A stretch of 64,000 bases of DNA from Arenicola marina (Eukaryota > Annelida > Polychaeta > Arenicolidae): assembly GCA_964019135.1 (NCBI GenBank), contig OZ025258.1, forward strand, positions 10,435,961-10,499,960. Direction: 5' to 3'. The notes beneath the pieces were generated by a model that saw only the letters and a program-made list of their open reading frames with translations, was not told the origin of the DNA and searched no databases. The position numbers were made by a program, and so were the translations under genes. Positions 1 through 34,700 of this stretch are shown here, in pieces. The first letter of the stretch is position 1. Every line of letters begins with the position of its first letter.

Positions 1-2253
1 CATGGTATTTGAGGAGTCATCGATCACGAGATTAGTCTCCGCCCATCGATTCTTAATAACAACGTCTTGCAAATCAAAAAGAGGCGGGTCGGGTCGCTCG
101 CCGCGCATGCGCCATATGTATTGATCGCATCGTCCAACAGGGGACGCAGTCGCCAACCACGGACGCTCCTTCGGCGACCAAATCACGGCAGGAACAGCTC
201 GAAAGAAGCTTTCCTGCGCAGGCAGGAAAAGCACCTTATAACCACAGAATTCACAACAGTTTCGCATGTACGTTTGCATGTACGCAGCAACCAGTCTGTT
301 AGATCAAAATAAAACAAAATAACAATGACACCGCCCCCCCCCCCCCCCACCCTCACCATCTTCTCCGCTAGTATTAATAATTAATGCTAATGATTCCAGT
401 TTAAGCGACCCATAATGGACCCGCAAGACAATACTAATGCCCGGTTTATAGCGTAAGAAATGAATAGCAAAAAAAAAAAAATCAACCTCACATGAAATCT
501 AATTCAAAGGTTCACAACTGCGAACTCCATGATGTTGTCGCGTTGGAGGCACCAAAGCGGACCACGTGACAGGTTTCATCAGAGCCGACGCCAGCGTGAC
601 CCGCCCATAGGCCACGAGGGACTGCACGCACCGATATTAAAATCACCATCAAGCACACTGACACTCTCGAGCTGGGTTTCATGAATGCAGATGTGCATGG
701 AAGATTCAATCTCACATCGAAGAAATCTCGGGACTTTCGCGTTGCGGATGCTATAAATTACACACAGATATAATCACTGGCTTTACATAATGCAGCCAGA
801 GACCAGGGGAGTGTGGCGAAGGGGTCAGGGCAATTGGATGATAACACACGTGGGTCGGCCAGGCGCATAATAATTTATAATCGTTGAAGTGGGGCTGAGT
901 AAATAGGCTCCCGGGGTGACAAGTTTTGCTCCCATCGGTTTATGTTTTCCCGATCATCATGCAGACATCATCACAAAGCTATCGTGATTGATAAGTTACC
1001 CAGCAGATATTAACTCCCAAATTATTCTACAACCGACTGCAGATTGTGCAGTCTTTAGGAGCAAAAATCGCGCGAGGGGCAGGGGGGGGGGGGTGGACGC
1101 GGGTGCGGGTGCGGGTGGACGCACGCGGGGTGACGGTGGCTCACTGGCCCGGCCACGCTCGACCCCGGAATCCCTCCAAATTTTGCCTCCGTTGCCATGG
1201 TATTTGAGGAGTCATCGATCACGAGATTAGTCTCCGCCCATCGATTCTTAATAACAACGTCTTGCAAATCAAAAAGAGGCGGGTTGGGTCGCTCGCCGCG
1301 CATGCGCCATATGTATTGATCGCATCGTCCAACAGGGGACGCAGTCGCCAACCACGGACGCTCCTTCGGCGACCAAATCACGGCAGGAACAGCTCGAGAG
1401 AAGCCTTCCTGCACAGGCAGGAAAAGCACCTTATAACCACAGAATTCACAACAGTTTCGCATAGTTTGCACGTACGCAGCAACCAGTCTGTTCGATCAAA
1501 ATAAAACAAAATAACAATGACACCGCCCCCCCCCACCCTCACCATCTTCTCCGCTAGTATTAATAATTAATGCTAATGATTCCAGTTTAAGCGACCCATA
1601 ATGGACCCGGAAGACAATACTAATGCCCGGTTTATGGCGTAAGAAATGAATAGCAAAAAAAAAAAATCAACCTCACATGAAATCTAATTCAAAGGTTCAC
1701 AACTGCGAACTCCATGATGTTGTCGCGTTGGAGGCACCAAAGCGGACCACGTGACAGGTTTCATCAGAGCCGACGCCAGCGTGACCCGCCCATAGGCCAC
1801 GAGGGACTGCACGCACCGATATTAAAATCACCATCAAGCACACTGACACTCTCGAGCTGGGTTTCATGAATGCAGATGTGCATGGAAGATTCAATCTCAC
1901 ATCGAAGAAATCTCGGGACTTTCGCGTTGCGGATGCTATAAATTACACACAGATATAATCACTGGCTTTACATAATGCAGCCAGAGACCAGGGGAGTGTG
2001 GCGAAGGGGTCAGGGCAATTGGATGATAACACACGTGGGGTCGGCCAGGCGCATAATAATTTATAATCGTTGAAGTGGGGCTGAGTAAATAGGCTCCCGG
2101 GGTGACAAGTTTTGCTCCCATCGGTTTATGTTTTCCCGATCATCATGCAGACATCATCACAAAGCTATCGTGATTGATAAGTTACCCAGCAGATATTAAC
2201 TCCCAAATTATTCTACAACCGACTGCAGATTGTGCAGTCTTTAGGAGCAAAAA
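1..2253. repeat. 1.2-kb tandem duplication
   Basis: Bases 1-1068 recur almost unchanged at 1196-2253, a period of about 1195 bp. Copy 1 carries about 127 bp more (1069-1195, G-rich) that is absent after copy 2, and copy 1 probably starts left of the window. Differences seen by eye are few: a shorter poly-C tract in copy 2, a few substitutions near 270/1463 and 450/1637, and one extra G near 2040. The low divergence implies a recent duplication or homogenisation. It lies in what should be a downstream intron of Nup88. No Nup88 exon was recognised inside it. A 138-codon minus-strand open frame (1471-1055) crosses the copy junction; its product is not recognised. Confidence 0.9.
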
Positions 2254-2375
2254 TGAAGGATGGACGTTATATATCTTACAGATTATAAAAATAGTAACAA
2301 TAGTAGACCTTTTGAGAAGTAGAAGAAGACGAAAATGGTTACTGTGGCGCAGCCATTATAATAGGACACTTACAA

Positions 2376-2487
2376 GTCAATTCTCTTGTACTACTAAGTC
2401 AATTCTCTTGTACTACTAAGTCAATTCTCTTGTACTACTAAGTCAATTCTCTTGTACTACTAAGTCAATTCTCTTGTACTACTAATA
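2376..2487. repeat. 22-bp minisatellite, about 5 copies
   Basis: The unit AAGTCAATTCTCTTGTACTACT-like (22 bp) is repeated about five times with almost no divergence. It sits between the 1.2-kb duplication and the 35-bp array. No gene is visible in it. Confidence 0.9.
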
Positions 2488-2494
2488 CTTATCG

Positions 2495-3840
2495 GTCAAG
2501 GTGAAAGGTTACCTTTGTGGTGCCGGACGGTGCAAGGTTACCTTTGGGGAGCCAGACGGGGAAGGTGAAAGGTTACCTTTGTGGTGCCAGACGGGGAAGG
2601 TGAAAGGTTACCTTTGTGGTGCCAGACGGGGAAGGTGAAAGGTTACCTTTGTGGTGCCAGACGGGGAAGGTGAAAGGTTACCTTTGTGGTGCCAGACGGG
2701 GAAGGTGAAAGGTTACTTTTGTGGTGCCAGACGGGGAAGGTGAAAGGTTACCTTTGTGGTGCCAGACGGGGAAGGTGAAAGGTTACCTTTGTGGTGCCAG
2801 ACGGGGAAGGTGAAAGGTTACCTTTGTGGTGCCAGACGGGGAAGGTGAAAGGTTAGCTTTGTGGTGCCAGACGGGGAAGGTGAAAGGTTACCTTTGTGGT
2901 GCCAGACGGGGAAGGTGAAAGGTTACTTTTGTGGTGCCAGACGGGGAAGGTGAAAGGTTACCTTTGGGGAGCCAGACTGACCAGGTGAAAGGTTACCGTT
3001 GTGGTGCCAGACGGGGCAGGTGAAAGGTTACCTTTGCGGTGCCAGACGGGGCAGGTGAAAGGTTACCTTTGTGGTGCCAGACGGGGCAGGTGAAAGGTTA
3101 CCTTTGTGGTGCCAGACGGGGCAGGTGAAAGGTTACCTTTGTGGTGCCAGACGGGGCAGGTGAAAGGTTACCTTTGTGGTGCCAGACGGGGCAGGTGAAA
3201 GGTTACCTTTGTGGTGCCAGACTGACCAGTTGAAAGGTTACCTTTGTGGAGTCAGACGGGGCACATTAAAGATTACCTTTGTGGAGCCGGACGGGGCAGG
3301 CAAAAGATTACCTTTATGGAGCCAGACGGGGCACATTAAAGGTTACCTTTGTGAAGTCAGACAGGGCAGATGTAAGGTTACTGGGGCAAGGTCATGGGTT
3401 TCCTTTGTGGACCCAGACGGTAAGGTCAACGGTTACCTTTGTGGAGCCAGACGGGGCAGGTGAAAGGTTACCGGAGCAAGGTCAGAAGGTTACCTTTGTG
3501 GAGCCAGACGGGGCACGTTTAAAGGTTACCTTTGTGGAGCCTGACGGGGCAAGGTCAACGGTTACCTCTGTGGAACCAGACGGGGCAAGGTGAAAGGTTA
3601 CCTTTGTGGAGCCAGACGGGGCACGTTTAAAGGTTACCTTTGTGGAGCCAGACGGGGCAAGGTAAACGGTTACCTTTGTGGAACCAGACGGGGCAAGGTC
3701 AAACGTTACCTTTGTGCAACCAGACGGGGCAAGGTCAAAGGTTACCTTTGTGGTGCCAGACGGGGCAAGGTGAACGGTTACCTTTGTGGAACCAGACGGG
3801 GCAAGGTCAAAGGTTACCTTTGTGGAGCCAGACGGGGCAG
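2495..3840. repeat. 35-bp minisatellite made from a Nup88 splice-donor junction
   Basis: About 38 units of 35 bp (some 36-37 bp), each with core GGTTACCTTTGTGG, then GCCAGACGGGG. Read on the minus strand the unit is the last 19-20 bases of Nup88 exon 6 (encoding PVWLHK) followed by the intron start GTAACC, so every intact unit contains a copy of the 5' splice site. Units next to the exon carry its exact CTCCACAAAG form. Distal units (2560-2940) carry CACCACAAAG and are nearly identical to one another, suggesting expansion away from the exon followed by homogenisation. About thirty units keep an intact AAAG/GTAACC-type junction by eye count. Units at 2711, 2851, 2921 and around 3376-3466 are altered at the junction. 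Confidence 0.95.
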
Positions 3841-3998
3841 GTGAAGTCCTCCATCTCGTCAGCCTCGGGTTGGTCGGGGTGGAGGGGTGCGGTGGTGAGG
3901 GCCAGCTCCAGCTCAATGCTCTCATACACGTGGAGACTGCGGGTCGGGGGCCAGTCCGCCGACCACCCGTCCTCCGTGCTGCTGGCATCGAACTGCGA
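3818..3998 (-). CDS. Nup88 exon 6 (donor seeded the 35-bp array)
   Basis: 181 bases, acceptor GTCGACAG/TCGCAG (an alternative acceptor lies 6 bases on) and donor CACAAAG/GTAACC. It encodes [28 protein letters not shown], an acidic loop and [11 protein letters not shown], aligning with vertebrate YVFECVELELAL...DFSCPVKLHR. Read-through past the donor meets an in-frame stop after three codons (GNL). The next expected exon (vertebrate DPKCPSRYHC region) is not seen in the window. Confidence 0.92.
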
Positions 3999-6900
3999 CT
4001 GTCGACACGCCACGAGATGCATTTCAGTGTATGGTAAAATAGCTCTTGATTATCTGCATGGTAAATACGCGAGTCTCCATCAATTAGTCAAAGTATACAT
4101 TTGTAACGAGCAGTTGTGAGCTGATAACACTGAGGATGAGCTTACTATATCGCGACATACCAATCACTGTAATGTAAACTGTTACACTGCATGTAAACTG
4201 TTACACTGCATGTAACTGTTACACTGTATGTAAACTGTTACACTGTATGTAAACTGCTTAAATATTTCTCCAACCATATAACAATATATACAAAACCAGA
4301 AATATGCTGGACTTTACAGATTTGATTTGATTTGATTGGGGCTTAACGGCACTTTCAGCCTGGAAGGCCATATCCTGCCATATTGGTTTAAGGTTATTCT
4401 AAATAAGTCAAGAGTCAATATTAAAACCCTGAAAATCAATACATGTGATATGAATAAAACCATGAATGTAGTCTTTGTGGAATCGATTAATAGATTAATA
4501 AAACCCTGAGGGTATCAAGTAATATGATTGAGCAGATTGTCATAAAACCATGAAAGTGATGGCTTTACAGAAAGGACATCGTTTATGGTTTATGCAAACT
4601 ACCAACAGCTTTCACTTGCTCCCGTGGATATTCAAAATCAGCGCTGACGTCACACGTGTGATAGAGAAATAAAACAGCCTGTACCACCACTTCGCTGGCG
4701 TCCTCGCGGTCGTAGTCCAGGACGACGCAGTGGTAGAGTCTGCCTTCCTCCGTGGACACCACGAGGACGGGGGGCTGAGAGGCCAGACACAGTAAGGAAC
4801 AGGCGTCGGTGCCGTAGTTGTCCTCAGCGGGCGGGTACATGGGCATGGGGCCCGGTACGGGGTAGCTGCAACAGCAAACAACCGTGACGCCTAATGCATA
4901 AACCACATCTTCGTATCAGTTACAGTGGTTTTTAAATTATGAACAATATCTTACCACTCACCCAAGAAGAAACACGTGTGATGGGAGGGTGTTTGATTTG
5001 TATTCCAAGTCACCACGTGGCAACATATCAAATTATAGATAAAATATATTAAAATCACCATGCATTTTCTGAATCGTTGAAAAATCGTTGTATCTGATAC
5101 TAAAGAAGAAACGAACATTTCTTTATTCAACAAGAAATCAGTTCTCCATCGCCAAGGACAACAAGGGGAGTCAGTTCGAATGAACGGGTTTGGAAACCGA
5201 ACAAAAATTACTCATCAGGAGGAATTCATATCATAAACTCCGACACAACATAAAACTGTCCGCTGAGCATGTTAAAGAACCAGCCCATGAAATGTATTGG
5301 TGTTTCAGGCCGCTTTTGTGGGCCAAGGAGCATCACGGCACGATGAATGATGAACGGAGCAAACATGCCCCAGATGAGGTGCCCGGATTTCAACGATGAC
5401 CGGGTTTAGTGCACTGACCACCACACCAGTGAGACCCCACAAACCAGCACAACAACAAACCTTTTCGAGTCGAGAGGGATGATGACCTGGAAGACTTCCC
5501 CGTTGCCCCACAGCACGAAGGCCGGCCATCCGCGCTCTGCCGTCTCATCCCTGTCCAGCGCGCGCCCCTTGCTCTTCCGTTTTGGCGCCAAGTCGATGGG
5601 GGGTCCGAAGTCAAACGACACTGCGGCGTCTCCGAGCACGCGCTGCAGGGAGAGGATGGACAGGGCGCTTGACCGGAAACTGGCTTGGTCAGACGCGCAC
5701 GAGGTCAGGAAGATGTTGTGAAGGGCTTCACGGGGGTCATCCAAGGCATATGTTCTGAAAACAATGTGTACACATAAGCATTTATATGTCAAAAATACAA
5801 AACATGTCTGACATATCTAAATAAAAAAGAAAAATTCATGTTCTAACTTAACTAATTGAGAAGTTAGAAGTTACAATTAGGATCTGCATTTATATATACA
5901 ATAAACCAGTATCTTGTGTCAATGAAGTGAATTGGGCAAACAAGAACAGAGAAACGTCATATATCTCTTAACAGCTATCAGTCCTCATAGCTTTCTTCAC
6001 AGAGCTCTTAGTGATCTATAATCAATTCGACAGTTGCCAGATTACAGTACAAATAATTTTCAGTTCTCACAGCCCACTGCATAAGTCCTTGAACCCAAAT
6101 ATTGATAGTGTGATATCTCGGCCCAGGCCGGGTGAATACAAGACACCAAAAGCCTCGGGCCAAACGGGAAGTTCCCTTTCGTCTAATGCGTTTGGTGTTC
6201 GCTCGGGAAGGTCGCCGGTTCGAATCCCGCCAGTTCGGGTAGTAAACTTTCGGCGTCCATTCGGGCCTGGGACCAGAAGTACTACAATATCATTGATATG
6301 ATATGAAGTTACTGTACCTCATATTGTTGTCCGAAGTGAGTAATGTGATGTGGGTATCTGGACTTCCTGGGTGCCAGGCTGCATGCAACAGCTTACAGCT
6401 TGAGCCAATGAAGAGACGCTCTGCCACTGGGATTGTCCTGGAGGCAAAGCAAATAAATGTACCAATAATAATCAATATTGACTCCCAATTAGGTATTTAT
6501 AACAGCATTCACAAGTACTACTCGTAACATATTTATCTGACAATGAGAAGGTTTATCTTTGCCATATATTTTATTGGATTAATAGTATAATTTTATTATG
6601 ATATTCAGTTTCTTGGTACAAATTAATGAATAATTTCTATAAATGTAATGTATAGTAATTTAGAGCTCAACTTTTTCAAGTGAAACTTCTTCTTACTTGC
6701 AAAGAATTCTTTCCTTTCCTCCTTCATACATGCCATACCGGCCACGTCTTTGTGGAAGCTGTATCACGGAGAGCCCCTTCTTCCCCACCAATGCTAAATA
6801 TGCTCCGGTGACACTGAACAGCAGCGAGTCCACTGCAAACACTGGTGGAGATGTCAGCGTAAGTCTCTAACAAAAATAAAGAAACAAATACACATGTCAG

Positions 6901-16700: not shown

Positions 16701-19700
16701 GTGGGTAACGGTCGGGAGGGGGGTGTGGGTAACGGTGGGGGGGAGGTGTAGGTACTGATGGGAAGGGGTGGGGTGAAGGTAACGGTGGGGAGGGGTGGGG
16801 TGTGGGTAACGGTGGGTAGGTGTCACCGTGCTGTCGCCGCTACCTTGAAAACTAGACCACATTGTTGTATGAAGCGGTACTGCTGGACAGGAAGACAATC
16901 TTTCTGCGACCGTTTTTAGGAGATTACTTAACATTCGATGGATATGGGTACCGAGGCGGTGGGAGATTGGCGGTGGTGCTGGGGGAGGTTAGAGGGCGGG
17001 GCGTCATGTGTGTGTGTGGGTGGTGCGGATAGGGGTGGGGGTTTGGGGAGAGGGGTTCGTCCAAGATTGTTGTGCCCCACGTGGAAACCGGCTCAAGACA
17101 GTCGTGTTAAGGAAATGGCGGATTTAGGGCCATTGATCACCAATGCTACGGCCTTCGCATCATTGATTTTCATTAAAGTTGCATTTATAGGATGGCAATT
17201 GACGGGAGATTACTTAGGCTGGTCGTCAAGCCGGGCGCGGTAATGGCCCCGTCCCTCGCATATCACACTACAGACTGTCCCCGCTGAGGGCGGCATTACG
17301 ACCCTGGCAATATTGCGGAACCGGTCGCCGACATTCAACAGATAAAATATTGGCTCCGAACTACAGCCTGGGGAGGCCTACAAAGGGCCGAGAAACAAGC
17401 GCTTACCGAGTCCTCATGGTCCGGGCGCACTGCCGCCCGGGGGGTGGGGGGGGGGGGCTGGGCGAGGTGGGCGACCCAGAGCACCAAATAGGAGGGGGGA
17501 GGAAGAGAGGGAGTAGAGGGAAGAAAGGGGGGTGGGGGGTTGGTAGTGTCGGGGTCATTTATTCCCGTCTCGATCGATGGGTGATTGGAGCGTGTGTGAC
17601 AGCCTTTATAGCTGTTTATATCTGGGGGTCTGCCATGCGGGTAGATCCGTTAGCCCAGGGCCAGTGGCGGCAAGGTCCACGTGCCGCGGTGGGGGTGGGG
17701 AGTGGGGGATGCTGTGGGGGGGGGGGGGTGAAGGGCAGGGGGTGGGGGCATCCCTCACCGCACGTGCCTCCTCTCCTTGTCTGTCCGTCTGTTGCTATAT
17801 TGTGATGACTGTATCCACATAGCGCCCTGGTCATCTCCGAATAGCGCACACACCGCATAAGGCCGTGTGCGCATGATTCGGTATCACTATATGTAGAACT
17901 AGCTCCAATAATGGTGAAAAACGGTGAGTCCACAGCGTGGTCAGCAAGCTGTTGGCAGCTGTTGGGTTGTGCACAGACAGAACAGAGGGCTGGTTGGTAC
18001 GTGGTTCCGATACCCAATAAACGGTGTGAATAGATGTCGATCAATATTGATGGATGGATTGGTTTGTCAGGCCAGGCTTTGTGTACATATATATATAGGC
18101 TTACGTCAAACTAGAGGTGTGGTAGTGTGTAAAGCAACATGTTTGATGTAACAGACTAGGTCTAGGTTACAGGCTACTAACAGTCTAGGTCACAGCTTAT
18201 TAACAGTCTAGGTTACAAGCTACTAACAGTCTAGGTCACAGCTTATTAACAGTCTAGGTTACATCTTGTTAACAGTCTAGGTCAGAGCCTAGATCACATG
18301 CTACTCCACACTCTGTGCCAGGTTATACGTCACATCCTACATCTCAGATTACGTCAATGACTGTCACATATTACGTCAAATGTTACGTCACAGACAACGT
18401 CACATGTTACGTCACAGACTACGTCACAGACTACGTCACAGACTACGTCACAGGTGTCATCAAGGGCTAGTACACTGGCCACGTTAGAGGCGGCGCTATA
18501 GACCACGTTAGAGGCCGCGCTATAGGCCCCGTTAGAGGCCGCGCTATAGGCCCCGTTAGAGGCCGCGCTATAGGCCACGTTAGAGGCCGCGCTATAGACC
18601 ACGTTAGAGGCGGAGCTATAGACCACGTTAGAGGCCGCGCTATAGGCCACGTTAGAGGCGGCGCTATAGACCACGTTAGAGGCGGCGCTATAGACCACGT
18701 TAGAGGCCGCGCTATAGACCACGTTAGAGGCCGCGCTATAGGCCCCGTTAGAGGCCGCGCTATAGGCCACGTTAGAGGCCGCGCTATAGACCACGTTAGA
18801 GGCCGCGCTATAGACCACGTTAGAGGCGGCGCTATATACCACGTTAGAGGCGGCGCTATAGGCCACGTTAGAGGCGGCGCTATAGACCACGTTAGAGGCG
18901 GCGCTATAGACCACGTTAGAGGCCGCGCTATAGACCACGTTAGAGGCCGCGCTATAGGCCACGTTAGAGGCCGCGCTATAGGCCACGTTAGAGGCCGCGC
19001 TATAGGCCCCGTTAGAGGCCGCGCTATAGGCCACGTTAGAGGCCGCGCTATAGGCCCCGTTAGAGGCCGCGCTATAGGCCACGTTAGAGGCCGCGCTATA
19101 GACCACGTTAGAGGCGGAGCTATAGACCACGTTAGAGGCCGCGCTATAGACCACGTTAGAGGCGGCGCTATAGACCACGTTAGAGGCGGCGCTATAGGCC
19201 ACGTTAGAGGCGGCGCTATAGACCACGTTAGAGGCCGCGCTATAGACCACGTTAGAGGCCGCGCTATAGGCCACGTTAGAGGCGGCGCTATAGGCCACGT
19301 TAGAGGCGGCGCTATAGACCACGTTAGAGGCCGCGCTATAGGCCCCGTTAGAGGCCGCGCTATAGGCCACGTTAGAGGCCGCGCTATAGACCACGTTAGA
19401 GGCGGCGCTATAGACCACGTTAGAGGCCGCGCTATAGGCCCCGTTAGAGGCCGCGCTATAGGCCACGTTAGAGGCCGCGCTATAGACCACGTTAGAGGCC
19501 GCGCTATAGACCACGTTAGAGGCCGCGCTATAGACCACGTTAGAGGCCGCGCTATAGACCACGTTAGAGGCCGCGCTATAGACCACGTTAGAGGCCGCGC
19601 TATAGACCACGTTAGAGGCCGCGCTATAGACCACGTTAGAGGCCGCGCTATAGACCACGTTAGAGGCGGCGCTATAGGCCCCGTTAGAGGCCGCGCTATA

Positions 19701-22700
19701 GACCACGTTAGAGGCGGCGCTATAGACCACGTTAGAGGCCGCGCTATAGGCCCCGTTTAGAGGCCGCGCTATAGGCCACGTTAGAGGCCGCGCTATAGAC
19801 CACGTTAGAGGGCGGCGCTAAAGACCACGTTAGAGCCGCGCTATAGACCCCGTTAGAGGCCGCGCTATAGACCACGTTAGAGGCGGCGCTATAGACCACG
19901 TTAGAGGCCGCGCTATAGGCCCCGTTAGAGGCCGCGCTATAGGCCACGTTAGAGGCCGCGCTATAGACCACGTTAGAGGCCGCGCTATAGGCCCCGTTAG
20001 AGGCCGCGCTATAGGCCACGTTAGAGGCCGCGCTATAGACCACGTTAGAGGCCGCGCTATAGGCCCCGTTAGAGGCCGCGCTATAGACCACGTTAGAGGC
20101 CGCGCTATAGGCCACGTTAGAGGCCGCGCTATAGACCACGTTAGAGGCGCGCTATAGACCACGTAGAGGCCCGCGCTATAGACCACGTTAGAGGCGGCGC
20201 TATAGACCACGTTAGAGGCCGCGCTATAGACCACGTTAGAGGCCGCGCTATAGACCACGTTAGAGGCCGCGCTATAGACCACGTTAGAGGCGGAGCTATA
20301 GACCACGTTAGAGGCGCGCTATAGACCACGTTACAGCCGCGCTATAGACCACGTTAGAGGCGGCGCTATAGACCACGTTAGAGGCGCGCTATAGACCACG
20401 TTAGAGGCGGCGCTATAGACCACGTTAGAGGCGGCGCTATAGACCACGTTAGAGGCCGCGCTATAGACCACGTTAGAGGCCGCGCTATAGACCACGTTAG
20501 AGGCCGCGCTATAGACCACGTTAGAGGCGGCGCTATAGACCACGTTAGAGGCCGCGCTATAGACCACGTTAGAGGCGGCGCTATAGACCACGTTAGAGGC
20601 CGCGCTATAGGCCCCGTTAAGGCCGCGCTATAGACCACGTTAGAGGCGGCGCTATAGACCACGTTAGAGGCCGCGCTATAGACCACGTTAGAGGCGGCGC
20701 TATAGACCACGTTAGAGGCCGCGCTATAGGCCCCGTTAGAGGCGGCGCTATAGACCCCGTTAGAGGCCGCGCTATAGGCCCCGTTAGAGGCCGCGCTATA
20801 GGCCACGTTGGCTGCCAGGTCCTGCGGTGGTTACGCTGTGTTATATAGGAGTATAACATAGGCCGCTGCTTGTGGTATCAGGCCAAGTTGTCCCGTGTGT
20901 TTGGTTCATCGATCTCGCTCATCGATCGATCGATTGGAAACCGTTACCGACCGATGACCACCATATATCAACGCGGCTTCAACAGTGGCCGTGGCGATGT
21001 CGCAGTCGTTAGTCGTCCTTGCTATATGAGGAACAGTTGATCGTCTTACCACAATAATCTGTGGCGTGTTTTGCGAGAAGCCAGTATATTTCCAAACGCT
21101 AGGCGTTGTTGCACTGCCCTTTGACATCGTTACGTGGTGATCGAAGCTGGTAGGCGCGGCCGCGGCGGCTTAGGTACACGTGGGTCAAACCCCCATTTCA
21201 CGGGTTGGCAGTGACGTCACGGGTTGGCAGTGACGTCACGGGGATGATCTCTCGTAAGGCGATTTGGAAATGAAACAAATTGGTGTTTTAGGCCGCTTTT
21301 GTGCACACGACGGCGAATACTAGGCCAAGGAACCTTCCGGGACGATCATTGAAGGATGACTGGATGAAACTTGCCCCAGATTAGGTACCCGTGTTCGGAA
21401 TTGAATTCGCGACCTCGATATGCGGTCTAGTGCGCAAACCACTACACCAGAGAGGCCCACTGTTTAGGGCCCGGACCACTACACCGGAGAGGTCCCCGGT
21501 CTAGTGCGCTAACCACTACACCAGAGAGGCCCCCTGTTTAGTGCCCGGACCACTACACCAGAGAGGTCCCCGGTCTAGTGCGCTAACCACTACAGCCCCC
21601 AGACAATGTGGCATCTAGAAATGTCTTGCCGGCTACTGGTTTTATCACGTCTGTCAGTGTATATATAAATATACATACCTATATAGACCGGGCAGCCGCT
21701 GATTCTCCATTATCGCCCACAGCGTCTTAATTTGTACCGACATATTAAGTAGATTAGCGGAGTCCATTGATCTGATATAGACGTAGAGAAAGCAACATTA
21801 GATATTGTGGTTGTTTTCGTGTCTCCTGTTGATGTTCGATACCCATGTAGGCCTTGAGATTCCTTCTTGGATGTTGCTTTTTGGGGAAATCTGACCTGTG
21901 AGTTTATTAATATTTACCGATGATAGCGGGCCGGGTGGGGTCGGGGGGGGGGGCGGGGGTGTCTTTGATGTGGATATTTTTACCTTCCACCTGGGAGTGT
22001 ATGGGGCGTTGTGTGACGGGTAGATGATGCGGGGGTGCGATCAGGTCCCGTCGATGCGGGGTGGTGGTGCTGGTACAACAGGTGGCTGCTGGGAGTGAGT
22101 GCCTCGGGAGTGGCGGAGTGGTTGGTGGAGGGAGGACCCGTGCTTCCCTTCCCCAGGGGGACACGTCACACCCTGCGGCAATCTCCCTCGTTGGAGGCAG
22201 GCAGCCGGCAGGGAGGGAGGGAGTGAGAGCGGGAGAGAGGGTTGACGGGCGGGCGGGCGGGCTGACGGGAAGGGAAAAGGGAGACGCCATTACTGAGTAT
22301 AGACCTCCATTCGATTCCCATCCATATCGCCGGCTTATTAACGGCCGGCCCTCTGTCCTTCACCTGTTTCAGTCAATTATCAGTATGAACGCCGGTCGAC
22401 GGTGGGGGTGCGTGGGGTAGGGTGGGCGTAGGGCGGCGGCATGGAGTGAGGCAGGCAGGGCGGGGAGGGGGGGGGGGGGAGGGCGGAGGGGGGTGTAACC
22501 CGGGGGGGTGACGCTGGCAGTATGGCACGCCGCCACCTCGCCGGCGCTGTGCTGGAGTAAGTAGTACCGGGGGGTGCCAGAGAGAGGGAGAGAGGGAGCG
22601 AGCCAGGAAGTGCCGAACAGTCAGTCAGTCCTCAGCCCGTGCGCCTTTACGACGATGTCTCCTCAATAAGATCCCCCCCCCCCCACCGCCACCCCCCACC

Positions 22701-25700
22701 TCTATCCTCTTAAGCCCGCCACCGGGTCGTACGCTGCTCCTCCGGCTTCAACATCTTTATAGTAGTCTGCGGGTCCTTGCCTCGCCGCTCGAGTGCTGGG
22801 AGAGCGCGGGCTGGAGAGGGGAAGGAGGAGGGAGTGGGGGAAGGGAGGCGTAGGCGGGGCGGGACGGGGGGGGGGGGCAGTGCTCCCGACACTCGCGGGA
22901 GGCTGAGACAGTCTTGTCCGCCACGTCTTGCACGGGGATGGAAGCAACAGTCTACTTTAGGCAGCGAGGCAGCCAGTCTCACAGTGAGTGAGTGAGTGAG
23001 TGAGGCGACTGGTGGGTGGTGAGGCCGGCCATGCGGGAAAGCGCTGGAGGCCGTGGGTGGGGGGGAGGGGGGGGGGGAGGGACGGGAGTGGGAGACAGGG
23101 TTGGGGGGAGAGGGGCATGCTGCATGCTGCCCCCCCCCCCTCCCCACCGTCCTAAAGACCCTTGTTCTTTAATGGGGTCTGCGCGGTACGTCCAGCGCGG
23201 GGCGGACAGGGCACTCCTCCATGTTGTACGTCCAGCGGGGGATGGTTTCTATGGTACCCGCATCATCTACTACCTCGGGCCCTGCCTGCATAACTGTAGC
23301 ATGCAGACTGACTGGGGAAGGAGATATATGAGAAGGGGGGCGGGGGGGGGGGGCAGGTGAGGGAAGGGTGGCGGGAAGAAGACGCAATGGGCTGGCTCTG
23401 GTGATGAGAAGGAATGGAAAGGAGTGCGGGGGGGGGCGCTGAGTTGGCAGGCATGGAGGGGGTGGTGGTGTTGGGAGGGGTGGGGGGTAAAAGGGAGGCA
23501 GGTGGGTATGCGGCTGTCGAGACCACGTGGGAGGGGAACAGGGAAACGTTTTGTTGTGTACTAGACCGCCAGATAAATGTGATCGTTTTTTTTAAAGTAT
23601 TATGACCGTTGCCTGTCGCGCATTGATAGATGTATAGTCGTCACTCTGGTGGCGTTCCCAATCACTGCACCGACAAACCATGCCCGGCCCTGCCCAGTGC
23701 TGTACATCTGTGCCGCGGCCCTGGCCCCTGGGTTATGTGGTGACGGACACATCGGGCTGGCGGGTCCGGGCCCTTCCGGAGCCATAATAAAGGTGGCACG
23801 GATGAGTGATCCATACTCGTCGCCGGATCCGGAATATCTTTGTCTGGGGCGGGATTAAGGCCAAGCGGTCCGTCTGGAGTGAATCACCCAGGACTAATGA
23901 TTGAGTGAATCACCTGGGACTAATGATTAAGTAAGTGGTTCACCCGGGACTAATTATTGAGTGAATCACCCGGGACTAATTATTGAGTGAATCACCCAGG
24001 ACTAATTATTGAGTGAATCATCCTGGACTATTTTTTTAGTAAATCACCCGGAATTAATTCTTGAAGGAATCACCCGAGACCAATGATTGTGTGAATCACC
24101 CTGGACTAACGACTGAGTGAGTGAAGCACTAATGAATAGTGATTGAATATGTGAATCACCCGGGACTAAATATTGAGTGAATCACCCAGGACTAATGATT
24201 GAGTGAATCACCCAGGACTAATGATTGAGTGCATTGCCCAAGACTAACAATGTCAGAGCTTATGAAGTGTGTTACGCCGCAATATGTGTTTGGTACTGTA
24301 GGGAAGTAGTCAATAGCTGTCAACCAGTATCAAACTGTGGTGATGTCTGCGTCCACTTATTGAGGGATAACATTGCATTGTAAATAAGTATGTTTTGATA
24401 TACGGGTGGTTTATGGTGACTGCTGATCGATAAAGGGCCATAATATTTTTTAATTGGTATATAGATCTGGCGCCCTGTCAGAGATATGTTTCCAGGCTGC
24501 TGTACCCCTTTCTCCTAACGTCCGCCACCCCCCCCCCCCCCTCCCGCTCCGAACTTCTTTTTTTGCCTCACGGTGCACGCGATATACCCCCGTCACCACC
24601 CGCCCAACTCAACCCGGCACATAGCTCCCGCCTGTTCTCCCCGCGCCTGTAATCAGGCCGCAGGTGTGAGGATTGCCCCCTACACCCCCCCCCCCCCCCC
24701 CGCCAGCCCCCCACTCCCGCCCCCCCGCCACGTCGGTCGCTCGCATTGTATCGTGACCCTGACTTCCGCCGACTCCGCAACGTAAGGAGCACAATGCGAC
24801 TTCAATGGTCGACCCTGTCGATATGGGCCTATCTGCCCATGCCCACCCCCACCCCCAACCCCCACCTCTACCCTCCAAAGGATCGAACTTGCTGATCGAA
24901 CTCAACTCGAAACTTGGGATGTCACGTGGCTTGTTTGTCCCATTGTGTAAGAGGTTTATCTCTCTGGGTAACGGCTGAGGGGTGGAGTGCGGGGAGAGGG
25001 AAGGGGTGGAGCGCAACGGAGCCTCAGTAACAGCTGAAGGGTGGTGGGAGGCCGGAGAGGGGGAGCGGTGGGGGGGGGGGGGGGGGCTCAGACGACTCGG
25101 TGCAGCATCGATTTCTGATCGATCTCAGCTTTTCGATCTCGATGTTTCCGTCCAGATGTTGTGTGAACAATGCGGCGGTCCTCGATTAATGGGAGACGTG
25201 AGATCAGTGTGAGAGATTGCCCCCCCCCCGCCCCACCGCCCCCCTACCGCCAAGCCCCATCCTCGACGACCCGGGTGGCTGATGACTTACTCCCCCTGTC
25301 CACTGTTGCTTAGCGACAGATGTCTCAGTCTTGGCGTAAAGTTCGTTGGTGCGGCTCAACATAGATCAGTATTGATGGATGCGACTGTTTTACCGCAGTA
25401 TGTGTCAGTATCTATGTACGCCACGCTGCCACCCGGGTCCATTTTTTTGTTGGAGGAATTACTAATGTAATGGACGTCATGCACAGTGCTCTTGTCGTCT
25501 CCACGTACAGCTATTCCAATAGCCCCTGTTGTCACCCAGTATAGCTATTCCAGTAGCCCCTGTTGTCACCACTTACAGCTATTCCAGTAGCCCCTGTTGT
25601 CACCACTTACAGCTATTCCAGTAGCCCCTGTTGTCACCACGTACAGCTATTCCAGTAGCCCCTGTTGTCACCACGTACAGCTATTCCAGTAGCCCCTGTT

Positions 25701-28700
25701 GTCACCACTTACAGCTATTCCAGTTGCCCCTGTTGTCACCACTTACAGCTATTCCAGTAGCCCCTGTTGTCACCACGTACAGCTATTCCAATAGCCCCTG
25801 TTGTCACCACTTACAGCTATTCGAATAGCCCCTGTTGTCACCACTTACAGCTATTCCAATAGCCCCTGTTGTCACCCAGTATAGCTATTCCAATAGCCCC
25901 TGTTGTCACACAGCATAGCTATTCCTGTAGCCCCTGTTGTCACCACTTACAGCTATTCCAATAGCCCCTGTTGTCACCCAGTATAGCTATTCCGGTAGCC
26001 CCTGTTGTCACCACTTACAGCTATTCCAGTCCCCCCTGTTGTCACCACTTACTGCTATTCCAGTAGCCCCTGTTGTCACCACTTACAGCTATTCCAATAG
26101 CCCCTGTTGTCACCACTTACTGCTATTCCAGTAGCCCCTGTTGTCACCACTTACAGCTATTCCAGTAGCCCCTGTTGTCACCACGTACAGCTATTCCAGT
26201 AGCCCCTGTTGTCACCACGTACAGCTATTCCAGTAGCCCCTGTTGTCACCACTTACAGCTATTCCAGTAGCCCCTGTTGTCACCACTTACAGCTATTCCA
26301 GTAGCCCCTGTTGTCACCACTTACAGCTATTCCAGTAGCCCCTGTTGTCACCACTTACAGCTATTCCAGTAGCCCCTGTTGTCACCACTTACAGCTATTC
26401 CAGTAGCCCCTGTTGTCACCACGTACAGCTATTCCAGTAGCCCCTGTTGTCACCACTTACAGCTAATCCAGTAGCCCCTGTTGTCACCACGTACAGCTAT
26501 TCCAGTAGCCCCTGTTGTCATCACTTACAGCTATTCCAATAGCCCCTGTTGTCACCGATTACAGCTATTCCAGTAGTCCCTGTTTTCACCCCTTGCAGCT
26601 ATTCCAGTAGCCCCTGTTGTCACCACTTACAGCTATTCCAGTAGCCCCTGTTGTCACCACTTAGAGCTATTCCAGTAGCCCCTGTTGTCACCACTTACAA
26701 CTATTCCAGTAGCCCCTGTTGTCACCACTTACTGCTATTCCAGTAGCCCCTGTTGTCACCACTTACAGCTATTCCAGTAGCCCCTGTTGTCACCACGTAC
26801 AGCTATTCCAGTAGCCCCTGTTGTCACCACGTACAGCTATTCCAGTAGCCCCTGTTGTCACCACGTACAGCTATTCCAGTAGCCCCTGTTGTCACCACTT
26901 ACAGCTATTCCAGTAGCCCCTGTTGTCACCACTTACAGCTATTCCAGTAGCCCCTGTTGTCACCACTTACAGCTATTCCAGTAGCCCCTGTTGTCACCAC
27001 TTACAGCTATTCCAGTTGCCCCTGTTGTCACCACTTACAGCTATTCCAGTAGCCCCTGTTGTCACCACGTACAGCTATTCCAGTAGCCCCTGTTGTCACC
27101 ACTTACAGCTAATCCAGTAGCCCCTGTTGTCACCACGTACAGCTATTCCAGTAGCCCCTGTTGTCATCACTTACAGCTATTCCAATAGCCCCTGTTGTCA
27201 CCGATTACAGCTATTCCAGTAGTCCCTGTTTTCACCCCTTGCAGCTATTCCAGTAGCCCCTGTTGTCACCACTTACAGCTATTCCAGTAGCCCCTGTTGT
27301 CACCACTTACAGCTATTCCAGTAGCCCCTGTTGTCACCACTTACAACTATTCCAGTAGCCCCTGTTGTCACCACTTACAGCTATTCCAATAGCCCCTGTT
27401 GTCACCGATTACAGCTATTCCAATAGCCCCTGTTGTCACCCAGTATAGCTATTCCAGTAGCCCCTGTTGTCACCACTTACAGCTATTCCAATAGCCCCTG
27501 TTGTCAGCACTTACAGCTATTCCAGTAGCCCCTGTTGTCAGCACTTACAGCTATTCCAATAGCCCCTGTTGTCACCACTTACAGCTATTCTAATAGCCCC
27601 TGTTGTCACCACTTACAGCTATTCCAGTAGCCCCTGTTGTCACCACATACAGATATTCCAGTAGCCCCTGTTGTCACCACGTACAGCTATTCCAGTAGCC
27701 CCTGTTGTCACCACGTACAGCTATTCCAGTAGCCCCTGTTGTCACCACTTACAGCTATTCCAGTAGCCCCTGTTGTCACCACTTACAGCTATTCCAATAG
27801 CCCCTGTTGTCACCCAGTATAGCTATTCCAGTAGCCCCTGTTGTCACCACTTACAGCTATTCCAGTAGCCCCTGTTGTCACCACTTACTGCTATTCCAGT
27901 AGCCCCTGTTGTCACCACTTACAGCTATTCCAATAGCCCCTGTTGTCACCACTTACAGCTATTCTAATAGCCCCTGTTGTCACCACTTACAGCTATTCCA
28001 GTAACCGCTGTTGTCACCACTTACAGCTATTCGAATAGCCCCTGTTGTCACCACTTACAGCTATTCCAATAGCCCCTGTTGTCACCACTTACAGCTATTC
28101 GAATAGCCCCTGTTGTCACCACTTACAGCTATTCCAATAGCCCCTGTTGTCACCCAGTATAGCTATTCCAATAGCCCCTGTTGTCACACAGTATAGCTAT
28201 TCCTGTAGCCCCTGTTGTCACCACTTACAGCTATTCCAATAGCCCCTGTTGTCACCACTTACAGCTATTCCAATCGCCCCTGTTGTCACCCAGTATAGCT
28301 ATTCCGGTAGCCCCTGTTGTCACCACTTACAGCTATTCCAGTCCCCCCTGTTGTCACCACTTACTGCTATTCCAGTAGCCCCTGTTGTCACCACTTACAG
28401 CTATTCCAATAGCCCCTGTTGTCACCACTTACTGCTATTCCAGTAGCCCCTGTTGTCACCACTTACAGCTATTCCAGTAGCCCCTGTTGTCACCACGTAC
28501 AGCTATTCCAGTAGCCCCTGTTGTCACCACGTACAGCTATTCCAGTAGCCCCTGTTGTCACCACTTACAGCTATTCCAGTAGCCCCTGTTGTCACCACTT
28601 ACAGCTATTCCAGTAGCCCCTGTTGTCACCACTTACAGCTATTCCAGTAGCCCCTGTTGTCACCACTTACAGCTGTTCCAGTTGCCCCTGTTGTCACCAC

Positions 28701-31700
28701 TTACAGCTATTCCAGTAGCCCCTGTTGTCACCACGTACAGCTATTCCAGTAGCCCCTGTTGTCACCACTTACAGCTAATCCAGTAGCCCCTGTTGTCACC
28801 ACGTACAGCTATTCCAGTAGCCCCTGTTGTCATCACTTACAGCTATTCCAATAGCCCCTGTTGTCACCGATTACAGCTATTCCAGTAGTCCCTGTTTTCA
28901 CCCCTTGCAGCTATTCCAGTAGCCCCTGTTGTCACCACTTACAGCTATTCCAGTAGCCCCTGTTGTCACCACTTAGAGCTATTCCAGTAGCCCCTGTTGT
29001 CACCACTTACAACTATTCCAGTAGCCCCTGTTGTCACCACTTACTGCTATTCCAGTAGCCCCTGTTGTCACCACTTACAGCTATTCCAGTAGCCCCTGTT
29101 GTCACCACGTACAGCTATTCCAGTAGCCCCTGTTGTCACCACGTACAGCTATTCCAGTAGCCCCTGTTGTCACCACGTACAGCTATTCCAGTAGCCCCTG
29201 TTGTCACCACTTACAGCTATTCCAGTAGCCCCTGTTGTCACCACTTACAGCTATTCCAGTAGCCCCTGTTGTCACCACTTACAGCTATTCCAGTAGCCCC
29301 TGTTGTCACCACTTACAGCTATTCCAGTTGCCCCTGTTGTCACCACTTACAGCTATTCCAGTAGCCCCTGTTGTCACCACGTACAGCTATTCCAGTAGCC
29401 CCTGTTGTCACCACTTACAGCTAATCCAGTAGCCCCTGTTGTCACCACGTACAGCTATTCCAGTAGCCCCTGTTGTCATCACTTACAGCTATTCCAATAG
29501 CCCCTGTTGTCACCGATTACAGCTATTCCAGTAGTCCCTGTTTTCACCCCTTGCAGCTATTCCAGTAGCCCCTGTTGTCACCACTTACAGCTATTCCAGT
29601 AGCCCCTGTTGTCACCACTTACAGCTATTCCAGTAGCCCCTGTTGTCACCACTTACAACTATTCCAGTAGCCCCTGTTGTCACCACTTACAGCTATTCCA
29701 ATAGCCCCTGTTGTCACCGATTACAGCTATTCCAATAGCCCCTGTTGTCACCCAGTATAGCTATTCCAGTAGCCCCTGTTGTCACCACTTACAGCTATTC
29801 CAATAGCCCCTGTTGTCAGCACTTACAGCTATTCCAGTAGCCCCTGTTGTCAGCACTTACAGCTATTCCAATAGCCCCTGTTGTCACCACTTACAGCTAT
29901 TCTAATAGCCCCTGTTGTCACCACTTACAGCTATTCCAGTAGCCCCTGTTGTCACCACATACAGATATTCCAGTAGCCCCTGTTGTCACCACGTACAGCT
30001 ATTCCAGTAGCCCCTGTTGTCACCACGTACAGCTATTCCAGTAGCCCCTGTTGTCACCACTTACAGCTATTCCAGTAGCGCCTGTTGTCACCACTTACAG
30101 CTATTCCAGTAGCCCCTGTTGTCACCACTTACAGCTATTCCAGTAGCCCCTGTTGTCACCACTTACAGCTATTCCAGTTGCCCCTGTTGTCACCACTTAC
30201 AGCTATTCCAGTAGCCCCTGTTGTCACCACGTACAGCTATTCCAGTAGCCCCTGTTGTCACCACTTACAGCTAATCCAGTAGCCCCTGTTGTCACCACGT
30301 ACAGCTATTCCAGTAGCCCCTGTTGTCATCACTTACAGCTATTCCAATAGCCCCTGTTGTCACCGATTACAGCTATTCCAGTAGTCCCTGTTTTCACCCC
30401 TTGCAGCTATTCCAGTAGCCCCTGTTGTCACCACTTACAGCTATTCCAGTAGCCCCTGTTGTCACCACTTACAGCTATTCCAGTGGCCCCTGTTGTCACC
30501 ACTTACAACTATTCCAGTAGCCCCTGTTGTCACCACTTACTGCTATTCCAGTAGCCCCTGTTGTCACCACTTACAGCTATTCCAGTAGCCCCTGTTGTCA
30601 CCACGTACAGCTATTCCAGTAGCCCCTGTTGTCACTACTTACAGCTATTCCAGTTGCCCCTGTTGTCACCACTTACAGCTATTCCAGTAGCCCCTGTTGT
30701 CACCACGTACAGCTATTCCAGTAGCCCCTGTTTTCACCACTTACAGCTAATCCAGTAGCCCCCGTTGTCACCACGTACAGCTATTCCAGTAGCCCCTGTT
30801 GTCATCACTTACAGCTATTCCAATAGCCCCTGTTGTCACCGATTACAGCTATTCCAGTAGTCCCTGTTTTCACCCCTTGCAGCTATTCCAGTAGCCCCTG
30901 TTGTCACCACTTACAGCTATTCCAGTAGCCCCTGTTGTCACCACTTACAGCTATTCCAGTAGCCCCTGTTGTCACCACGTACAGCTATTCCAGTAGCCCC
31001 TGTTGTCACCACGTACAGCTATTCCAATAGCCCCTGTTGTCACCGATTACAGCTATTCCAATAGCCCCTGTTGTCACCCAGTATAGCTATTCCAGTAGCC
31101 CCTGTTGTCACCACTTACAGCTATTCCAATAGCCCCTGTTGTCACCACTTACAGCTATTCCAGTAGCCCCTGTTGTCAGCACTTACAGCTATTCCAATAG
31201 CCCCTGTTGTCACCACTTACAGCTATTCTAATAGCCCCTGTTGTCACCACTAACAGCTATTCCAGTAGCCGCTGTTGTCACCACTTACAGCTATTCCAAT
31301 AGCCCCTGTTGTCACCACTTACAGCTATTCCAATAGCCCCTGTTGTCACCACTTACAGCTATTCCAATAGCCCCTGTTGTCACCACTTACTGCTATTCCA
31401 GTAGCCCCTGTTGTCACCACTTACAGCTATTCCAGTAGCCCCTGTTGTCACCACGTACAGCTATTCCAGTAGCCTCTGTTGTCACCACTTACAGCTATTC
31501 CAGTAGCCCCTGTTGTCACCACTTACAGCTATTCCAATAGCCCCTGTTGTCACCACTTACAGCTATTCCAATAGCCCCTGTTGTCACCACATACAGATAT
31601 TCCAGTAGCCCCTGTTGTCACCACTTACAACTATTCCAGTAGCCCCTGTTGTCACCACTTACAGATATTCCTGTAGCCCCTGTTGTCACCACGTACAGCT

Positions 31701-34700
31701 ATTCCAGTAGCCCCTGTTGTCACCACTTACAGCTATTCCAGTTGCCCCTGTTGTCACCACTTACAGCTATTCCAGTAGCCCCTGTTGTCACCACGTACAG
31801 CTATTCCAGTAGCCCCTGTTGTCACCACTTACAGCTAATCCAGTAGCCCCTGTTGTCACCACGTACAGCTATTCCAGTAGCCCCTGTTGTCATCACTTAC
31901 AGCTATTCCAATAGCCCCTGTTGTCACCGATTACAGCTATTCCAGTAGTCCCTGTTTTCACCCCTTGCAGCTATTCCAGTAGCCCCTGTTGTCACCACTT
32001 ACAGCTATTCCAGTAGCCCCTGTTGTCACCACTTACAGCTATTCCAGTAACCCCTGTTGTCACCATTTACAACTATTCCAGTAGCCCCTGTTGTCACCAC
32101 TTACTGCTATTCCAGTAGCCCCTGTTGTCACCACTTACAGCTATTCCAGTAGCCCCTGTTGTCACCACGTACAGCTATTCCAGTAGCCCCTGTTGTCACC
32201 ACGTACAGCTATTCCAGTAGCCCCTGTTGTCACCACGTACAGCTATTCCAATAGCCCCTGTTGTCACCGATTACAGCTATTCCAATAGCCCCTGTTGTCA
32301 CCCAGTATAGCTATTCCAGTAGCCCCTGTTGTCACCACTTACAGCTATTCCAATAGCCCCTGTTGTCAGCACTTACAGCTATTCCAGTAGCCCCTGTTGT
32401 CAGCACTTACAGCTATTCCAATAGCCCCTGTTGTCACCACTTACAGCTATTCTAATAGCCCCTGTTGTCACCACTAACAGCTATTCCAGTAGCCGCTGTT
32501 GTCACCACTTACAGCTATTCCAATAGCCCCTGTTGTCACCACTTACAGCTATTCCAATAGCCCCTGTTGTCACCACTTACAGCTATTCCAATAGCCCCTG
32601 TTGTCACCACTTACTGCTATTCCAATAGCCCCTGTTGTCACCACTTACAGCTATTCCAGTAGCCCCTGTTGTCACCACTTACAGCTATTCCAGTAGCCCC
32701 TGTTGTCACCACGTACAGCTATTCCAGTAGCCCCTGTTGTCACCACGTACAGCTATTCCGGTAGCCTCTGTTGTCACCACTTACAGCTATTCCAGTAGCC
32801 CCTGTTGTCACCACTTACAGCTATTCCAATAGCCCCTGTTGTCACCACTTACAGCTATTCCAATAGCCCCTGTTGTCACCGCATACAGATATTCCAGTAG
32901 CCCCTGTTGTCACCACTTACAACTATTCCAGTAGCCCCTGTTGTCACCACTGACAGATATTCCTGTAGCCCCTGTTGTCACCACTTACAGCTATTCCAAT
33001 AGCCCCTGTTGTCACCGATTACAACTATTCCAGTAGCCCTGTTGTCACCACTTACAGCTATTCCAGTAGCCCCTGTTGTCACCACTTACAGCTATTCCAG
33101 TAGCCCCTGTTGTCATCACTTACAGCTATTCCAGTAGCCCCTGTTGTCACCACTTACAGCTATTCCAGTAGCCCCTGTTGTCACCACGTACAGCTATTCC
33201 AGTAGCCCCTGTTGTCATCACTTACAGCTATTCCAATAGCCCCTGTTGTCACCGATTACAGCTATTCCAGTAGCCCCTGTTTTCACCCCTTGCAGCTTTT
33301 CCAGTAGCCCCTGTTGTCACCACTTACAGCTATTCCAATAGCCCCTGTTGTCACCACTTACAGCTATTCCAGTAGCCCCTGTTGTCACCACTTACAGATT
33401 TTCCAGTAGCCCCTGTTGTCACCACTTACAGCTATTCCGGTAGCCCCTGTTTTCACCACTTACAGCTATTCCAATAGCCCCTGTTGTCACCACTTACGGC
33501 TATTCCAATAGCCCCTGTTGTCACCGATTACAGCTATTCCAGTAGCCCCTGTTGTCACCACTTACAGCTATTCCAGTAGCCCCTGTTGTCATCACTTACA
33601 GCTATTCCAGTAGCCCCTGTTGTCACCACTTACAGCTATTCCAGTAGCCCCTGTTGTCACCACGTACAGCTATTCCAGTGGCCCCTGTTGTCATCACTTA
33701 CAGCTATTCCAATAGCCCCTGTTGTCACCGATTACAGCTATTCCAGTAGCCCCTGTTTTCACCCCTTGCAGCTATTCCAGTAGCCCCTGTTGTCACCACT
33801 TACAGCTATTCCAGTAGCCCCTGTTGTCACCACTTACAGCTATTCCAGTAGCCCCTGTTGTCACCACTTACAGATTTTCCAGTAGTTCCTGTTGTCACCA
33901 CTTACAGCTATTCCGGTAGCCCCTGTTTTCACCACTTACAGCTATTCCAATAGCCCCTGTTGTCACCACTTACGGCTATTCCAATAGCCCCTGTTGTCAC
34001 CGATTACAGCTATTCCAGCAGCCCCTGTTGTCACCCAGTATAGCTATTCCAGTAGCCCCTGTTGTCACCACATACAGATATTCCAGTAGCCCTGTTGTCA
34101 CCACTTACAGCTATTCCAATAGCCCCTGTTGTCACCACTTACGGCTATTCCAAGCCCCTGTTGTCACCACTTACAGCTATTCCAATAGCCCCTGTTGTCA
34201 CCACTTACAGCTGTTTCCAGTAGCCCCTGTTGTCACCACTTACTGCAATTCCAATAACCGCTGATACCCCCCCCCCCTCGGGATCAGGTCAGCGGCTGGT
34301 CAGCGGCTGGTCAGCGGCTGGTCGACATACCCCAGTGTCGCAAAGTTCGTTCCATTTATCAAGTCTGAATGCAGCCACTTGACACATAGGCTGCCACTCT
34401 GAACTTAACAGATTTAGCTATTGTAGTACCTGTTATGTGTGTACCCTTATGGTAATCAAGACTTCCCGCAGTATCCTGCCCCTGCCCCCCCCCCCCCCCT
34501 CTCACACTAACACATCTAACTGATTACGGACCGGGTAGGTACTATTTTGTAACTATTAAGTGCGGCTGTTTTGTACCGGTGAAAGTCAAGGTAAATAGCT
34601 GTCTTGTTTTGTAATATATTTTACGCAGCAACCCATTGAGCGCGTCTGAAAAAAAAAAAAAAAAAAAAAAATAGACGGACACTTAAATGAAATGTGTTTA

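What the first reader, a model, noticed from the sequence alone, without database searches (positions are those of the whole stretch)
2495..3998. A minisatellite that has amplified a real 5' splice site of Nup88
Seen directly: the 35-bp unit is the end of Nup88 exon 6 (PVWLHK codons) plus the first intron bases (GTAACC...), repeated about 38 times immediately downstream of the true donor. About thirty units keep an intact donor. Units nearest the exon are most exon-like and distal ones are homogenised, suggesting directional expansion from the junction. Because the first donor is followed in frame by GNL-stop, using any later donor would truncate the protein, so the spliceosome must pick the exon-proximal one of ~30 identical choices or make truncated products. 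The array could act as a U1 snRNP sponge or tune Nup88 levels; that part is inference.
Basis: partly seen in the sequence, partly recalled or inferred. Interest (0 to 1): 0.88.

Follow-up and report, generated by a model that had tools for sequence, protein, structure and literature searches.

The report
Splice-site-spanning minisatellite in Nup88 gene
A short DNA piece spanning the end of a nuclear-pore gene's exon and its splice site has been copied about 38 times in a row; structures of the same kind are already known in lancelets and in human genes, so this is a clear new example of a known curiosity.

Summary
On the minus strand, a Nup88 exon (the sixth recognised) ends [11 protein letters not shown] 35-bp unit, the last 28 exon bases plus the first 7 intron bases, is repeated 38 times just inside the 12.7-kb intron (TRF 2498-3845, counting the exon's own copy). 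Of 39 donor positions 37 keep GT and 28 keep the identical AAG|GTAACC. A whole-genome search found the unit (<=3 mismatches) only here. All 36 later GTAAC/GTAAT donors would bring in an in-frame stop. One reader claim fails (units near the exon are not the most exon-like); the 'U1 sponge' has no support. It is a new member of a known kind: minisatellites spanning exon-intron boundaries ('mirages' in amphioxus; VNTRs of human ABCA7, CBS, IFI6). In ABCA7 the one-unit-retained transcript is about 2%, and longer arrays increase skipping of the next exon. About 45% of a 200-kb sample of this genome is tandem arrays, so arrays seeded on boundaries are expected. Most likely it is a largely neutral by-product, spliced mainly at the exon-proximal donor, with leakage removed by nonsense-mediated decay. 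No RNA, population or related-species data could be had.

The parts
3818..4004 (-). Nup88 exon 6 (sixth exon recognised by homology); 3' end exact, 5' end approximate
   Evidence: match to Nup88 chains; joins exon 7 in frame; 187 nt from the assumed 5' end
3812..3820 (-). exon-proximal 5' splice site AAG|GTAACC; last exonic base 3818, first intronic base 3817
   Evidence: frame with exon 7; inferred from homology and frame, no RNA
3811..3845 (-). source segment of the unit: 28 exonic plus 7 intronic bases
3494..3817 (-). array units 1-9, each 36 bp (one extra T)
3207..3493 (-). array units 10-18, most diverged; three are shortened (22, 34, 21 bp)
2513..3206 (-). array units 19-38, homogenised, 35 bp (the last 29 bp)
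2498..2512 (-). remnant after the last donor position (GTAACCTTTCACCTT)

Best explanation
A 'mirage'-type minisatellite: a 35-bp segment spanning the exon-6/intron-6 boundary of Nup88 was tandemly duplicated and grew, by slippage or unequal exchange, to 38 copies that all lie inside intron 6. It is mainly a by-product of a genome that makes tandem arrays everywhere. The splicing machinery most likely uses the donor next to the exon, because exon definition favours an exon of about 190 nt over versions lengthened by 36 to about 1,300 nt. Occasional use of the next donor or two brings in a stop codon, and those transcripts are cleared by nonsense-mediated decay. Shown: junction origin, single location, retained donors, a stop in every later-donor product. 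Inferred: which donor is used, decay of the by-products, neutrality, mechanism of expansion.
For: Unit = exon -28..+7; exonic part conserved in Nup88; score 49 against at most 16 by chance; 34 of 34 genome hits in this array; 37 of 39 GT kept; 36 of 36 later donors give a stop. Tandem arrays cover 45% of 199,800 sampled bases, 41 arrays, and 40% of the 104-kb locus, so arrays seeded on junctions are expected. Precedents: lancelet boundary repeats are reported not to disturb splicing; in ABCA7 the one-unit-retained product is 2 +/- 1% and stop-containing products rise under cycloheximide.
Against: No RNA evidence at all. The donor hexamer is among the least changed stretches of the unit (lowest of 35 windows by counted runs), which could mean selection, though p is only 0.05-0.17 for the hexamer and 0.08-0.28 for the 9-mer. 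In ABCA7 array length does change splicing of the next exon and goes with lower expression, so 'neutral' may be too simple. Where two or more equal donors compete, sites nearer the 3' splice site can win (recalled).
Confidence: 0.75

Rival explanations
1. Length-dependent splicing modulator: as reported for human ABCA7, array length changes splicing of the flanking exons, for example skipping of exon 7, which is 99 nt and would drop 33 residues in frame, and so tunes Nup88.
For: ABCA7: exon-19 skipping rises with VNTR length (PMC5954066 section 21). More repeats of the boundary VNTR go with lower CBS activity (passage of a review). Exon 7 here is 99 nt, frame-preserving. Donor hexamer little changed.
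Against: No RNA or length-variation data for this locus; hexamer conservation not significant; lancelet boundary repeats reported not to disturb splicing.
Confidence: 0.12
2. [quoted passage not shown]
For: Each full unit carries AG|GT; a product spliced at donor k ends in AAAG, which could in principle be joined to donor 1 (sequence). AGGT tandem duplications can make introns in other genes (PMC4974935).
Against: The array's AAAG sites score on average 1.7 (maximum 4.5) on a recalled 3' splice-site table; 48% of 508 other AGs in the intron score as high, and 6 real Nup88 acceptors score 5.7-12.5.
Confidence: 0.04
3. U1 snRNP sponge or U1-based protection of the long intron from premature cleavage and polyadenylation.
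For: 37 donor-like sites with GT; few sites this good elsewhere in the intron (8 of 1165 GTs score as high on the recalled table).
Against: Modest pairing with U1: -6.5 kcal/mol against -14.0 for the consensus. U1 greatly exceeds Nup88 pre-mRNA in number (recalled). Only 4 AATAAA/ATTAAA in the intron, about 4 to 5.7 kb beyond the array.
Confidence: 0.03

Closest known systems
Amphioxus 'mirage' minisatellites (Adh3, globins BflGb6 and BflGb9, TnC, PGBD5)
   Same: [quoted passage not shown] PMC3902484).
   Different: Here 38 copies of a 35-bp unit, donor side only, in Nup88; globin units are about 150-160 bp with 3-6 copies in BflGb6. Taxon of this genome not determined.
Human CBS 31-bp VNTR, c.1444_1467+7(16_21)
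   Same: By its notation 24 exonic plus 7 intronic bases, 16-21 copies (passages of PMC2630376); here 28 plus 7.
   Different: Another gene and an independent origin; more copies here; CBS is polymorphic, length variation here unknown.
Human ABCA7 intron-18 VNTR
   Same: 25-bp unit beginning at the GT of the exon-18 donor; about 12-427 copies; a product retaining one unit is made (PMC5954066).
   Different: That unit is described as starting at the GT; here the unit includes 28 exonic bases before it.
Human IFI6 (6-16) minisatellite with multiple splice donors (Turri 1995, not held; title and a citing passage seen)
   Same: Repeat units serve as splice donors; two downstream units are used (citing passage in PMC4526556).
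   Different: There downstream donors give protein isoforms; here every later donor gives a stop.
Intron gain by tandem duplication of AGGT (Rogers model; potato RdRp, ATP2A1, fission-yeast genes)
   Same: Repeated AG|GT created by tandem duplication (passages of PMC4974935).
   Different: Here an existing intron, whose frame and flanking exons match Nup88, was lengthened; no new intron is indicated.

Membership tests
Mirage minisatellite / splice-boundary VNTR | Tandem repeat whose unit spans an exon-intron boundary of the host gene | tested here: met
   28 exonic + 7 intronic bases; control
Mirage minisatellite / splice-boundary VNTR | Copies carry splice signals | tested here: met
   37 of 39 donor positions keep GT
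Mirage minisatellite / splice-boundary VNTR | Regular splicing of the mRNA despite the repeats | not testable with these tools
   no RNA data
Mirage minisatellite / splice-boundary VNTR | Length instability between individuals or somatically | not testable with these tools
   one assembly only; homogenised distal block hints at turnover
Mirage minisatellite (in the narrow sense, cephalochordate) | Host is a lancelet | tested here: inconclusive
   genome unnamed; GFP and molluscan haemocyanin families gave no match, but no control genome rang either
Dual-specificity / AGGT intron-gain array | Repeated AG is a plausible 3' splice site | tested here: not met
   array AAAG mean 1.7, like arbitrary AGs; 6 real acceptors 5.7-12.5 (recalled table)

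The most novel reading that the evidence does not exclude
Array copy number acts as a heritable, fast-changing rheostat on Nup88: longer arrays shift splicing towards in-frame skipping of the 99-nt exon 7 or towards stop-containing products, with selection keeping the donor hexamer intact; and in this array-saturated genome many genes carry such boundary arrays.
Probability: 0.1. Interest if true: 0.6.

Novelty: new member of a known kind. Interest (0 to 1): 0.36.

Why it matters
It is a clean natural experiment on 5' splice-site choice: 37 donors with GT in tandem, 28 of them identical over nine bases, where the outcome (right frame or stop) is unambiguous. It adds a conserved nuclear-pore gene to the short list of hosts of boundary-spanning minisatellites, in a genome rich in tandem arrays, where one could ask how often genes tolerate them. 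The basic phenomenon is already described in lancelets and in human genes.

Tried and rejected
Dual-specificity or recursive splicing: rejected, since the AAAG sites score like arbitrary AGs. Direction of expansion from exon-likeness: rejected. Selection on the donors: the hexamer is the lowest of 35 windows by counted runs and tied among the lowest by the other two counts, but p is 0.05, 0.08 and 0.17 (9-mer: 0.08, 0.08, 0.28), so not claimed. Other Nup88-locus arrays derived from the 18 junctions tested: none above chance; best 15, shuffles up to 16. A look-alike between the 34-bp array after exon 7 and that exon's donor fell in the chance range too. Protein search with exons 6-7: 1 candidate, none with E <= 0.001. 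Organism by marker families: inconclusive. Papers: passages of PMC3087553, PMC3902484, PMC2630376, PMC5188458, PMC4974935, PMC2812944 and PMC4526556; passages and the whole of section 21 of PMC5954066; reference-list lines only of PMC2891723, PMC3618361 and PMC2572611. Looked up and not held: Turri 1995, Hellsten 2011, Canestro 2002. Lievers 2001, Zhuo 2007: seen in reference lists only.

Full report
What is there. On the minus strand of the window lies a Nup88 gene. A six-frame search of the 867-Mb genome with the Pfam Nup88 family gave 8 matches, all at this locus (the tool scores only its best candidates), so the gene looks single-copy. The sixth exon recognised ends ...[11 protein letters not shown] plus one base of the next codon; its peptide matches Nup88 chains in the PDB, where the aligned end reads CPVKLHR (best E 0.0012). 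The next exon lies beyond the window (L002) and reads DVGEVDRYHCSHSAGVHSVVLPWITKIQHFCQA, matching [21 protein letters not shown] (best E 1e-5). Joined at AAAG|GTAACC the two exons read through without a break. The intron is 12,719 nt by the coordinates (one search printed 12,717, its range ending two bases short). So the exon-proximal donor at 3818/3817 is the one that gives Nup88; this rests on homology and frame, not on RNA.

The array. From that junction 38 units run to 2513, followed by a donor remnant at 2512 (TRF: 2498-3845, including the exon's copy). The unit equals the last 28 bases of the exon plus the first 7 of the intron, 35 bp. Units 1-9 are 36 bp because of one extra T; units 10-18 are the most diverged and include three shortened ones; units 19-38 are homogenised. 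Of 39 donor positions, 37 keep GT and 28 have the identical nine bases AAG|GTAACC. A 28-base piece of the unit, at up to 3 mismatches, has 34 hits in the whole genome, all inside this array; the reversed control pattern has none (the tool warns that it skips very common words). The unit therefore came from this junction, and since its exonic part codes for a conserved protein segment the direction is exon to array.

Chance. The 20 non-overlapping arrays (period at least 10, at least 5 copies) of the 104-kb locus were aligned with 18 Nup88 splice junctions. This array scores 49 against the exon-6 donor; the best of any other array is 15; the best in 40 whole-set shuffles is 16. The 5' end taken for exon 6, and some other junctions in that set, are my own placements without RNA.

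Units near the exon are not more exon-like than distant ones (Spearman 0.12, p 0.50, 34 of 38 units); the one perfect copy is the eleventh unit, at 3471. The stop-codon point holds: 36 of 36 later GTAAC or GTAAT donors give a product with a stop.

How it probably works. The exon-6 donor is of middling strength: 7.1 on a recalled frequency table, against 3.2-12.4 for six other donors of the gene; U1 pairing -6.5 kcal/mol, against -4.5 to -12.5 for those six and -14.0 for the consensus. Twenty-eight of the 39 donors are identical over nine bases, so strength alone cannot decide among them. Exon length can: the natural exon is about 190 nt, and each later donor adds about 35 nt, up to about 1.3 kb, which exon definition disfavours (recalled knowledge). 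Known cases agree. In human ABCA7, whose VNTR begins at the exon-18 donor, the product retaining one unit is 2 +/- 1% of transcripts, stop-containing products rise under cycloheximide, and what changes with array length is skipping of the following exon (PMC5954066). Boundary repeats in lancelet genes are reported not to disturb splicing (PMC3087553; PMC3902484). I therefore expect main use of donor 1, a small leak to donor 2 or 3, and possibly length-dependent skipping of exon 7, which is 99 nt and frame-preserving. Against this, equal competing donors can also be chosen nearer the 3' splice site (recalled), and no RNA was seen.

Why it exists. In 20 stretches of 10 kb taken at fixed positions on twelve contigs, 45% of 199,800 bases lie in tandem arrays of at least five copies, 41 arrays in all; the Nup88 locus has 40%. 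Extrapolated, that is some 178,000 arrays in the genome. If arrays start at random places, several hundred to a thousand or more should have begun on an exon-intron boundary before selection (rough inference with a recalled figure of about 200,000 introns). One such array in a 64-kb window is then no great surprise.

Is the donor kept by selection? The six donor bases are the least changed of 35 windows by counted runs, and tied third and tied first-to-seventh by the other two counts; against random sets of six sites p is 0.05, 0.08 and 0.17, and for the nine donor bases 0.08, 0.08 and 0.28. Weak; not claimed.

Relation to the known. Closest in anatomy are the human CBS repeat, written c.1444_1467+7(16_21), so by its notation 24 exonic plus 7 intronic bases (PMC2630376), and the lancelet mirages. 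IFI6 has a minisatellite giving several donors (Turri 1995: title in reference lists; a citing passage). Human tandem repeats at exon-intron boundaries are also reported to make new introns (PMC2812944). The structural definition of a mirage or splice-boundary VNTR is met; splicing behaviour and length variability could not be tested, and the taxon of this genome was not determined.

Noticed in passing
L022-L041 (twenty 10-kb stretches of the genome): About 45% of 199,800 sampled bases lie in tandem arrays (period >= 10, >= 5 copies), 41 arrays; an unusually array-rich genome.
   Followed up: partly
L003 1-6019, all of L012, L013 from 7372 (C11:10403332-10421979): An 18.6-kb array of a 44-bp unit, about 433 copies, lies downstream of Nup88 exon 10, starting about 95 bp from the last exon-like codons.
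   Followed up: no
L002 1354-5437: A 23-bp array of about 179 copies also lies in Nup88 intron 6, so much of that intron is tandem repeat.
   Followed up: no
L002 9875-10000 plus window 1-1068, and window 1069-2254: A tandem duplication of about 1.2 kb, 98.3% identical over 1196 aligned positions, in intron 6; recent duplication or an assembly effect.
   Followed up: no
window 2374-2485: A perfect 22-bp repeat, 5.1 copies, 100% matches, just beyond the distal end of the array.
   Followed up: no
window 25493-34253 and 18479-20809: Two large minisatellites, 34 bp x 258 and 24 bp x 97, upstream of Nup88.
   Followed up: no
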